Shown: positions 6,445 to 12,411 of the stretch, piece by piece
Layout of the letters: each line of letters opens with the position of its first letter
Numbering within the stretch: the first letter of the stretch is position 1
Source: Candidatus Bathyarchaeota archaeon B24
Lineage (GTDB): Archaea; Thermoproteota; CALKCG01; B24
Assembly (NCBI GenBank): GCA_001593865.1
Contig: LUCB01000007.1
Span: 35,282-99,281 of the forward strand
Direction: 5' to 3'
Length of the DNA: 64,000 nt
Translations under genes and position numbers: made by a program
Notes under the pieces: model-generated
The model's database searches: none
What the model was told of the DNA's origin: nothing
Seen by the model: only the letters and a program-made list of their open reading frames with translations

Positions 6445-7940
<1,496 letters not shown>

Positions 7941-8082: not shown

Positions 8083-10067
8083 ACACGTGGCGGCTGCTGG
8101 GTTCCCGAGTAGACCCGGCACGCTAAGCCGCCTGGTGGATGGCTCGGCTTGGGCGCCGAGGAAGGGCGTGGCAAGCTGCGATAAGCCCCGGGGAGGCGCA
8201 TGCAGCCTTAGATCCGGGGATCCCCGAATGGGACCTCCTGCCATGGGTTAATAGCCCATGGCGCTCCCACCCTCCTCGGAGGGGGGAGTGGGAACCCCCC
8301 GAACGGAAACATCCAAGTAGGGGGAGGAAAAGAAACCATCATGGGATTCCCTGAGTACCGGCGAGGGAAAGGGGAGGAGCCCAAACCGAACCCCTGGGGC
8401 TGACAAACCCCACGGGGATGTGGTGTAGAGGCTCAGCCTATAACGCCCACCACCCTGGGAAGCCGAAGTGGCCTGGAACGGCCCGCCATAGAGGGTGATA
8501 GCCCCGTAGGCGTAACCAGGGTTAGTGGGCTGGCTGAGCCGGAGTACCACACCTTGGTTTTGGTGTGGGAATCTGGGTGGAACCAGCATCCAAGGCTAAA
8601 TACGTCCCAAGACCGATAGCGCACTAGTACGGTGACGGAAAGCTGAAAAGCACCCCGGAAGGGGGGTGAAAAGAGCCTGAAACCAGGCGGCGATATCCGT
8701 GTGGGGCCCGAAAGGGTGGATCCACCCCGAAGGAAGCCGTGGCGACACGGTTGTACGAGGGGTGGGGACCAGGGTCCCACGTTCCGTTTCGAACCACGGG
8801 CCGGGGAGTTCACCTCCACGGCGAGCTTAAGGGCTTTAAAGCCCGTAGGCGGAGGGAAACCGACAGGTCCGCAGCCGGGCCGCGAGGCTCGGTGAGGGAC
8901 GGGGTCTGAAAGGGCCCGGAGTCGTGGGGGTGATAACCAGAAACCGGGCGATCTAGCCCTGGGCAGGGCGAAGCCGGGCGAAAGCCCGGTGGAGGCCCGA
9001 AGGGATGTTGACGTGCAATTCGCTCCTCTGACCTGGGGCTAGGGGCCAAAAGCCAATCTAGCCCGGTGATAGCTGGTTCCTCCCGAAATGGGTCGCAGCC
9101 CAGCCTCAGGCGAGGTAGCCTAGGGGGTAGAGCACCGATAGGGTGGCAAGGGTCCGAAAGGGCCCACCACCCTTTCGAACTCCGAATCCCTAGGCTCCGT
9201 AGACCCTGGGAGACGGGCGTCGGGGGGTAAGCTCCCGAGCCGCGAGGGGAACAACCCGGACAGGGGTTAAGGCCCCTAAATGCCGGCTAAGTGTTAACGC
9301 GAAGGGAGTCCCCAGCCTGAGACAGCTGGGAGGTAGGCTTAGAAGCAGCCACCCTCTAAGCAACGCGTAACAGCGGACCAGCCGAGGCTGGGGGCCCCGA
9401 AAATGGACGGGGCTTAAGCCGGCTGCCGATACCCCTGGGCCCGGCGTACACGCGCCGGGTTGGTAGGGAGGCGTCGCGGCTGGGTAGAAGCCGAGCCGTA
9501 AGGTTCGGTGGACCGGCCGCGAATGTAGATCCCGGTGGTAGTAGCAGCAAAGAGGGGTGAGAATCCCCTCCGCCGCAGGGGCCAGGGTTCTCCGGCAATG
9601 CTCGTCAGCCGGAGGTTAGTCGGTCCTAAGGCGGCCCTTAACCGGTCGCCGCCGAAAGGGAAACCGGTTTATATTCCGGTACCGTAGGGGTACGTGCGGC
9701 GACGCAGGCTCCCAACCTGACGCCTCCGGGTAGGCTGAGTGGGGTTGCCGCCCCATTTAACCGCTGAAGCCTGGGGAGTGCCGTAAGGGCGAGAACCAGG
9801 TGAAGGCGGGAATAGCCTCCCGCATAGGGGGGTTCAGCCGATCCCGGGGGACAGGGAAAAGGGTTGGGAGAAGGATCCCCTACGACCGTACCTAGAACCG
9901 ACACAGGTGCCCCTGGGTGAGAAGCCTAAGGCGTGTCGGGTCAACGCGGGTGAGGGAATTCGGCAAATTAGCCCCGTACCTTCGGAAGAAGGGGTGCCTG
10001 CGGTCTTAGCCCACGAAGGCTGGGACTGCAGGTCGCAGTGACAAGGGGGCCCCGACTGTTTAATAAA

Positions 10068-10691
10068 CGGGTAGAGACGCCGGATGAGGCTGAAGAATTT
10101 TAAATAGACCTCGTCTTCATTAAGAGATATGATAATGAGTAGTGAACAGCGAAATGACGCATATATCATGGGATTATTTTATGGAGACGGCACAACCTAC
10201 AAGACGAAGAAAGGCGCCTATCAGGTTTGGATAGACCAGTCAGATAAAAACAAGGATATACTAGAATATGTGGCGGTACCTAAGCTTAGGCTAATGAACG
10301 TCAAACTGTTCTTCTATCAATTTATTGATAGAAGACATCGGTTAAAGAAATGGAGATTGGCTCTTTATTCAAAAACGTTCTTTGATAGATTAAAAAAGGT
10401 CAAGCGAGATCCTTTAGGATATTTAAAGACGCTTAACGATGATGAAGTAAGGTATTTTATTGCAGGCTTGTTCGACGCTGAAGGCACTAAGACCGATAGA
10501 CTAGTTATATATAACAGAAATCTCGAACTCTTACAGGAGATAGGAAGACGACTTAGCAATTTTAATATTCACTCTAAAATTTACAAGTTCGGCTCAATTT
10601 ATGGTTTACAAATTCACAGGAAAAGCTCTGTGAAGATTTTCCTTAAAATAATACCGTCTTACAGGTTGACGGCGTCCTCGCCCGGTTAAAA
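10068..10691 (+). mobile_element. 23S rRNA intron 1 (archaeal-type) encoding a LAGLIDADG endonuclease
   Basis: Interrupts conserved TTTAATAA|AACATAGG; ends contain CGGG..GACGCC / GGCGTC..CCCG complementary strands; exact junction ambiguous within an A run. Confidence 0.9.
10129..10689 (+). CDS. LAGLIDADG homing endonuclease (intron 1)
   Basis: Two motifs: AYIMGLFYGDGT and YFIAGLFDAEGT. Confidence 0.9.
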   Translation: MIMSSEQRNDAYIMGLFYGDGTTYKTKKGAYQVWIDQSDKNKDILEYVAVPKLRLMNVKLFFYQFIDRRHRLKKWRLALYSKTFFDRLKKVKRDPLGYLKTLNDDEVRYFIAGLFDAEGTKTDRLVIYNRNLELLQEIGRRLSNFNIHSKIYKFGSIYGLQIHRKSSVKIFLKIIPSYRLTASSPG

Positions 10692-10817
10692 AACATAGGT
10701 AGCCGCAAGCCCGAAAGGGTGTGTACGGCTGCTGAATCCTGGCCAGTGCCGGTACCTAAAACCCGGGTCCAACCGGGCTAAGGGCCGGTAAACGCCGGGA
10801 GTAACTCTGACTCTCTC

Positions 10818-11377
10818 AACGGAGCCGCCTCGCCGTCGAATAGATTTAAGAGAGTTCTGATGGTATGAACATTAGTAGTGTTGAGTGAGGATTATACGAA
10901 AGGATATGTTTCAGGTTTTATAGACGCTGATGGAAGCTTCTCAGTAAGCATCAAGGTTCAAAGAGATGTCCGCTATGGTGTCAGAATAGACCCAGTGTTT
11001 AGCGTGACCCAGAGAAACAGGGAAGTTCTAGAATTTCTTAGAAGAGCTTTAGGCTGTGGTAGGATTATTAAGAAGCCCGGTCAGGAAAACTTATGGCTGT
11101 ATATCGTGGATAGAGGAGCTTAACGGTAAGCTACTGCGGTTTCTAGAAGATGGATGCCGGCTGATCGTTAAGGATAGGCAGTTGAAGCTCTTTACCGAAA
11201 TAGTAAAGGGGCTTATCGAGAAGCAACACTATAGTTATGAAGGAATTAAACAGCTTGTTCATCTATCTTATGAGCTTTCATCTTTAGGCGGTAAAGCCGT
11301 AAGGCGTAGAAGCCTGAACGAGGTTCTCACGATAATAGAGGAATATGAGATGAGACGGCGGGACGCTCCGGGAGAAA
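10818..11377 (+). mobile_element. 23S rRNA intron 2 (archaeal-type)
   Basis: Interrupts GACTCTCTC|AAGGTAGCC (near E. coli 1923-1927); CGGAG..CGCCGTC / GACGGCG..CTCCG complementary ends. Confidence 0.88.
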
Positions 11378-11382
11378 GGTAG
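10878..11382 (+). pseudogene. LAGLIDADG homing endonuclease (intron 2), frameshifted
   Basis: GYVSGFIDADGSFSVSI in ORF 10878..11123; the C-terminal half (IEELNGKLLRFLEDG...) continues in another frame (11056..11382). Confidence 0.75.
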
Positions 11383-12411
11383 CCAAATGCCTTGTCGGAT
11401 GACATCCGACGTGCATGAATGGATCAACGAGGGCCCCGCTGTCCCCACCCGGGACCCGGTGAAGCTACCTGGTGGTGAAAAGTCCACCGTCCCCCAGCGG
11501 GGTGAGAAGTCCCCGTGGAGCTTTACTGCAGCCTGTTGTTGGGGTATGGCTGTGGATGCGTAGGGTAGGTGGGAGCCTTTGAGCCAGCCCTTCCGGGGGC
11601 TGGGGAGGCGCCGATGAAACACCACCCTTCCACGGCTGTACCCCTAACCTGGGTGCCAAACCCGGGGACAGCAGCAGGTGGGCAGTTTGCCTGGGGCGGC
11701 GCCCCCTTGAAAAGATATCGAGGGGGCCCTAAGGCCAGCTCAGGCGGGTCGGAAACCCGCCGTAGAGGGCAAGGCCAAAAGCTGGCCTGACTGGGTCCTT
11801 CACAGTAAGGGACCCAGGGGTGAAAGCCGGGCCTAGCGATCCTCCATGACCCCACTGGTGGGGGCTGGAGGTGACAGAAAAGTTACCCCGGGAATAATTG
11901 GCTTGTCGCGGGCGAGAGTTCACATCGACCTCGCGGCTTGGTACGCCGTCGTCGTCCCTTCCCATCCTGGCGGTGCATAAGCCGCCAAGGGTGAGTCTGC
12001 TCGCCTATTAAAGGGGAATGCGAGATGGGTTTAGACCGTCGTGAGACAGGTCGGACTCTACCTGCTGGGGGTGCTGGCCGCCTGAGGGGAGCCCGTCCTC
12101 AGTACGAAAGGAACGGGGCGGGGTGGCCTCTGGTGTACCAGCTGTCCGGTAGGGCAAGCTGGGCAGCCACGCCGCTGGGGATAAGGGCTGAAGGCATCTA
12201 AGCCCGAAGCCCCTCCCGAAAATAGGCGGCCATTCCTAGGCGTAGGAGGCCCGGCGACGGGTCTCATGCCTAGGACGAGGGCTGGGGTAGAACACCCCGT
12301 TGATGGGGTGGGGGTGTAAGCCGGAAGGTCTTCGGACCGACCGGTTCAGCCCGCCACTCCCAATCGCCCGAGGTGCTGGGTCGAAAAAGGAGCCTAGCAG
12401 CTGCGTGAAAT

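What the first reader, a model, noticed from the sequence alone, without database searches (positions are those of the whole stretch)
12098..12114. Sarcin-ricin loop carries GAAA instead of the universal GAGA (G2661A)
CCTCAGTACGAAAGGAACGG is seen where AGUACGAGAGGA is essentially invariant across life; the rest of the SRL is intact. G2661 contacts translational GTPases and is the base 5' of the alpha-sarcin cleavage site. Finding this in the same rRNA as the altered PTC suggests lineage-wide remodelling of universal ribosomal elements.
Basis: partly seen in the sequence, partly recalled or inferred. Interest (0 to 1): 0.9.

Follow-up and report, generated by a model that had tools for sequence, protein, structure and literature searches.

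The report
Natural GAAA sarcin-ricin loop, recurrent variant
A hot-spring archaeon has one altered letter in a famous 'universal' loop of its ribosome; the change is real and shared by its order, but it is a tolerated swap that has arisen more than once, and our own mitochondria carry it too.

Summary
Window 12101-12112 reads AGTACGAAAGGA, so base 12108 (E. coli 2661) is A. It lies in a complete archaeal 23S rRNA gene, the only LSU gene found in the assembly. It is not a sequencing error: every order member in which an LSU gene was found carries it (4 genomes, 3 genera, 2 families).

The claim that the G is essentially invariant across life is wrong. In a collection of one genome per species, 79 stretches carry A2661 in LSU context. 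They include Aenigmatarchaeota (32 of 33 archaeal-type loops in that phylum), a Sulfolobales/Desulfurococcales group, Planctomycetes and Clostridia. Human mitochondrial 16S rRNA also reads GUACGAAAGG. An archaeal tree rejects one A2661 clade (AU p = 6e-5).

GAAA is still a GNRA tetraloop; the bulged-G motif and C2658-G2663 pair are intact. In the mitochondrial EF-G1 structure the ribose at this position contacts the catalytic His. An E. coli A2660C/G2661A double mutant grows normally at 32-42 C. The order's aEF2 and aEF1A are canonical where checked.

The order's unusual PTC residues are real but separable: Sulfolobales and bacterial A2661 loci keep a canonical PTC. Best reading: a near-neutral natural variant fixed in this order.

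The parts
8111..12383 (+). archaeal LSU (23S) rRNA gene, complete, interrupted by two introns; the only LSU gene found in the assembly
   Evidence: Rfam RF02540, 2757 bits, model 1-2987; one match in the own genome
12101..12112 (+). sarcin-ricin loop core AGUACGAAAGGA (E. coli 2654-2665); GAAA tetraloop 12106-12109; G2655, U2656, C2658, G2663 and A2665 unchanged
   Evidence: sequence and alignment to E. coli 23S
12108..12108 (+). the substituted base, A at E. coli position 2661
   Evidence: alignment to E. coli 23S and relatives; shared by G008, G032 and G024
11890..11899 (+). PTC segment, E. coli 2444-2453, reads GGGAAUAAUU: G2447A, C2452U, A2453U; A2450 and A2451 unchanged. Separate oddity, not needed for A2661
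   Evidence: alignment
11945..11955 (+). PTC segment, E. coli 2499-2509: C2499G, U2500C, A2503U, U2504C, G2509U
   Evidence: alignment

Best explanation
A2661 is a genuine, functionally tolerated natural variant of the sarcin-ricin loop, fixed in the order to which this hot-spring archaeon belongs. GAAA, like GAGA, is a GNRA tetraloop. The purine at 2661 still offers N7 to the 2'-OH of G2659 and still stacks between A2660 and A2662. The C2658-G2663 closing pair and the G2655-U2656-A2665 bulged-G triple are unchanged, so the loop should present the same backbone to translational GTPases. GTPase activation here uses the ribose at 2661 and the phosphate and Mg2+ of A2662, which position the catalytic His and the P-loop Asp; it does not need the guanine-specific O6 and N2 groups. 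The substitution can therefore become fixed repeatedly. Shown here: sequence, position, sharing across the order, recurrence, a tree that rejects one A2661 clade, and intact factor motifs. Shown by others: contacts and tolerance in mitochondrial and E. coli ribosomes. Inferred: that the loop folds and works normally in this archaeon, and that fixation was near-neutral.
For: Shared by all four order members with an LSU gene. 79 stretches in one-genome-per-species data; 32 of 33 archaeal-type loops in the Aenigmatarchaeota phylum. Tree with A2661 in three places, AU p 6.4e-5 against one clade. Human mt-rRNA has the same loop, and A3129 (=2661) contacts EF-G1 H124 through its sugar (PMC7395135). 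SRL described as GNRA with an R2661 N7 bond (PMC4176186). E. coli A2660C/G2661A grows normally at 32-42 C, and in that panel EF-G GTPase was significantly inhibited only by alpha-sarcin cleavage (PMC5829649). P-loop and PGH motifs of aEF2 and aEF1A canonical in the order.
Against: The E. coli test was a double mutant, not G2661A alone, and was slightly cold-sensitive. A review reports base-level contacts of G2661 and A2660 with EF-G and calls G2661 critical (PMC6562825). Most lineages keep G: 194 G to 6 A in the own phylum sample, so the change is not fully free. No functional data exist for this archaeon.
Confidence: 0.85

Rival explanations
1. A2661 is one part of a coordinated remodelling of the ribosome's functional core (SRL plus PTC), with the changes compensating for each other.
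For: The order carries both A2661 and PTC changes (G2447A, C2452U, A2453U, U2504C), and many Aenigmatarchaeota A2661 loci also show C2452U with A2503C or U.
Against: Sulfolobales/Desulfurococcales and bacterial A2661 loci keep a canonical PTC where the alignment is sound, as does E. coli in the tolerated double mutant. Two co-occurring archaeal lineages are too few to show coupling. Factor motifs are unchanged.
Confidence: 0.08
2. A2661 was selected because it protects the loop from enzymes that recognise or cut GAGA, such as PIN-domain VapC toxins (M. tuberculosis VapC20 cuts between 2661 and 2662).
For: VapC20 cleaves exactly at the 2661-2662 bond (citing Winther 2013), and GAGA is described as the main recognition element of ricin.
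Against: The same paper says substrate conformation matters more than sequence near the cut. No SRL-cutting toxin was sought in these genomes.
Confidence: 0.05
3. Sequencing or assembly error, or a decayed rRNA copy.
For: It is a draft assembly in 37 contigs, about 90% complete; reads could not be inspected.
Against: The same base is in three other assemblies at 99 to 87% LSU identity. The gene is full length and the only LSU copy found.
Confidence: 0.01

Closest known systems
Sarcin-ricin loop of human mitochondrial 16S rRNA (GUACGAAAGGAC, A3129 = E. coli 2661)
   Same: Same GAAA tetraloop and same base at 2661 in a working ribosome
   Different: Organelle ribosome of bacterial descent; the base 5' of the GUACG differs (C-U-G-U versus C-A-G-U), and there is no known link of descent to this change
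Canonical GAGA sarcin-ricin loop of 23S/28S rRNA
   Same: All positions of the 12-mer except 2661; GNRA loop, bulged-G motif, same place in the LSU gene
   Different: A instead of G at 2661
E. coli A2660C/G2661A (GCAA) engineered SRL, PMC5829649
   Same: A at 2661; ribosomes support normal growth at 32-42 C
   Different: Engineered, and also changed at 2660
A-loop U2554C/U2555C of Thermoproteota, PMC9976906
   Same: Lineage-wide natural substitution at a nearly universal LSU position, tolerated in E. coli
   Different: In the PTC A loop, not the SRL; that paper has no occurrence of '2661'

Membership tests
Sarcin-ricin loop (H95) of LSU rRNA | Position in H95 of a complete LSU gene | tested here: met
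   Rfam LSU match 8111-12383 and alignment to E. coli 2654-2665
Sarcin-ricin loop (H95) of LSU rRNA | Bulged-G motif G2655-U2656-A2665 and closing pair C2658-G2663 | tested here: met
   All five bases identical to E. coli
Sarcin-ricin loop (H95) of LSU rRNA | GNRA tetraloop at 2659-2662 | tested here: met
   GAAA fits GNRA; sequence only, the fold was not determined
Sarcin-ricin loop (H95) of LSU rRNA | GAGA tetraloop sequence | tested here: not met
   A at 2661. 79 public stretches and human mitochondria show that this is not a necessary feature of a working SRL
Sarcin-ricin loop (H95) of LSU rRNA | Activates translational GTPases; cut by alpha-sarcin | not testable with these tools
   Needs biochemistry
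Natural GAAA (A2661) SRL as in human mitochondria and Aenigmatarchaeota | GUACGAAAGGA with A at 2661, shared across a lineage | tested here: met
   Four of four order members with an LSU gene

The most novel reading that the evidence does not exclude
In two separate archaeal lineages (this order and Aenigmatarchaeota) the A2661 SRL evolved together with substitutions at near-universal PTC bases (C2452U, A2503 and neighbours), because a re-tuned GTPase-activation step and a re-tuned PTC compensate for each other. In part of the Aenigmatarchaeota the P-loop Asp of aEF2 that senses the SRL is also replaced by His.
Probability: 0.08. Interest if true: 0.75.

Novelty: new member of a known kind. 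Interest (0 to 1): 0.3.

Why it matters
It corrects the belief that GAGA is the only natural SRL tetraloop: A2661 is shared by this archaeal order, is the norm among loops recovered from one archaeal phylum, and recurs in bacteria. That suggests GTPase activation depends on the loop's backbone geometry more than on the guanine base at 2661. It also gives natural test cases for that idea and for enzymes that recognise the GAGA loop.

Tried and rejected
Sequencing error: rejected by relatives. Second, normal operon: none found. Compensating changes in aEF2: nine order-specific substitutions were found, none in the P-loop, the PGH motif itself or the domain V Arg-Ser pair; the nearest is V84I just after PGH, also seen in some G2661 genomes. 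Folding the hairpin was uninformative, because the energy model does not represent the non-canonical SRL pairs. A first tree of 92 rows drew nearly all its G2661 rows from a few related groups, so its change count says little; a rebuilt tree with G2661 rows from many families was used. The first E. coli numbering was off by six and was corrected. No paper with both Aenigmatarchaeota and sarcin-ricin is in the library.

Full report
What is there. The window holds an archaeal rRNA operon: SSU at 6445-7937 and LSU at 8111-12383. At 12101-12112 the LSU reads AGTACGAAAGGA. Aligned to E. coli 23S, base 12108 is position 2661 and is A; the rest of the 12-mer is canonical. The genome has a single detectable LSU gene.

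It is not an error. Of seven genomes held for this order, four have an LSU match and all four carry A2661: own, same genus, another genus of the same family, and another family. The LSU 3' ends of the three relatives are 99.3, 93.0 and 86.8% identical to the window. Two of them appear to be public MAGs deposited as 'Candidatus Bathyarchaeota' (QZM_A2_bin_24 and SKYB62): their aEF2 matches have the same contig coordinates and scores. That the lineage lives in hot springs is my inference from these isolate names and the GC-rich rRNA, not something a tool reported.

It is not unique. A scan of a collection with one genome for each of 85,488 species, for LSU context followed by AGTACGAAAGGA, found 79 stretches. 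My count by record title is about 19 Aenigmatarchaeota, 10 Desulfurococcales/Sulfolobales, 2 of the own order, 13 Planctomycetes, 17 Clostridia/Bacillota and 18 others. The others include Myxococcales, Saccharibacteria, Dojkabacteria, Flavobacteriales, Chloroherpeton, and Nesciobacter and Gromoviella. Draft contigs may include contaminants. In the own phylum, 6 of 401 genomes match the A pattern and 194 the G pattern. In the phylum of one Aenigmatarchaeota genome (160 genomes), 34 loops were recovered: 32 A2661, one archaeal G2661, and one G2661 whose flanking sequence looks bacterial and is probably contamination. These are lower bounds, because many genomes lack an assembled LSU or vary in the context used.

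More than one origin is likely. A maximum-likelihood tree of 44 LSU segments, SRL excluded, put the A2661 archaea in three places: the own order (support 100/100), the Sulfolobales group (100/100) and the Aenigmatarchaeota (100/96, with a G2661 sister). Holding all A2661 rows together lowers the log-likelihood by 98; AU p = 6.4e-5. The fewest changes is three; the tool warns that three changes may also be one gain and two losses, and the bootstrap had not fully settled.

Mitochondria. Human mtDNA primers with mtDNA coordinates read CTCCCTGTACGAAAGGACAAGAGAA from 3117 and CCTGTACGAAAGGACAAGAG from 3120. In that register, by my own count, 2661 is A3129. The structure of the human mitoribosome with EF-G1 reports that catalytic H124 is stabilised through the sugar of A3129, and that the phosphates of A3130 and G3131 coordinate the Mg2+ that holds P-loop D56 (PMC7395135). 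So A2661 is the normal state of a working ribosome, and the reported contact there is to the sugar.

Tolerance. The SRL tetraloop has been described as GNRA with N2660-R2661-A2662 stacking and a 2'-OH(G2659) to N7(2661) bond (PMC4176186); adenine keeps N7. E. coli with A2660C/G2661A 23S rRNA in a strain lacking chromosomal rrn operons grows normally at 32-42 C and is slightly cold-sensitive; in that panel EF-G GTPase was significantly inhibited only by alpha-sarcin cleavage (PMC5829649). Against full neutrality, base contacts of G2661 with EF-G are reported (PMC6562825), and most lineages keep G.

Factors. In the order, aEF2 keeps AHVDHGKT and DTPGH in all seven members, and the domain V Arg-Ser pair in the six where that region aligned. 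aEF1A keeps GHVDHGKS and DAPGH in all seven. No order-specific aEF2 substitution lies in these motifs. The interface was not modelled, and uL6 was not examined, so more distant compensation is untested.

The PTC. The own sequence has G2447A, C2452U, A2453U, C2499G, U2500C, A2503U, U2504C and G2509U; A2450 and A2451 are unchanged. G008 and G032 share these. G024 shares them except that 2503 is A, and it adds A2448G. G2661 Thermoproteota controls in the same alignment are canonical there. Most Aenigmatarchaeota A2661 loci also show C2452U with A2503C or U. Sulfolobales and bacterial A2661 loci are canonical at 2447, 2452 and 2503 where the alignment is sound. So the PTC change is a real and separate oddity, and A2661 does not depend on it. 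Rows interrupted by introns misalign and were ignored.

Verdict. A true observation with an overstated premise: a natural GAAA sarcin-ricin loop, shared across an archaeal order and recurrent elsewhere, most likely tolerated because it keeps the GNRA fold. I did not find this distribution described in the library searched, which lacks most subscription journals.

Noticed in passing
window 11890-11955: PTC bases that are canonical in the G2661 Thermoproteota controls are changed: G2447A, C2452U, A2453U, C2499G, U2500C, A2503U, U2504C, G2509U. Shared by the order (A2503 kept, A2448G added in G024); C2452U with A2503C/U also occurs in many Aenigmatarchaeota.
   Followed up: partly
window about 10068-10688 and about 10827-11375: Two introns in the LSU gene, placed by comparison with G024, which lacks both; G008 lacks the first. 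ORF 10129-10689 (186 aa) in the first looks like a homing endonuclease by eye. The second intron's ORF is split between two frames (10878-11123 and 11056-11382), so it is decayed or has a frameshift.
   Followed up: partly
L150, L187, L188, L190-L195: aEF2 of nine Aenigmatarchaeota genomes reads SHVHHGKT where the others read AHVDHGKT or AHIDHGKT: the P-loop Asp that coordinates the SRL-bound Mg2+ in EF-G is His. Other A2661 Aenigmatarchaeota keep Asp.
   Followed up: partly
L229 (G521): The only G2661 match in the first Aenigmatarchaeota scan has bacterial-looking flanks and is probably contamination of that genome.
   Followed up: no
window 1-64000: ARAGORN finds no tRNA gene in the 64 kb; intron-containing tRNAs may be missed.
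   Followed up: no
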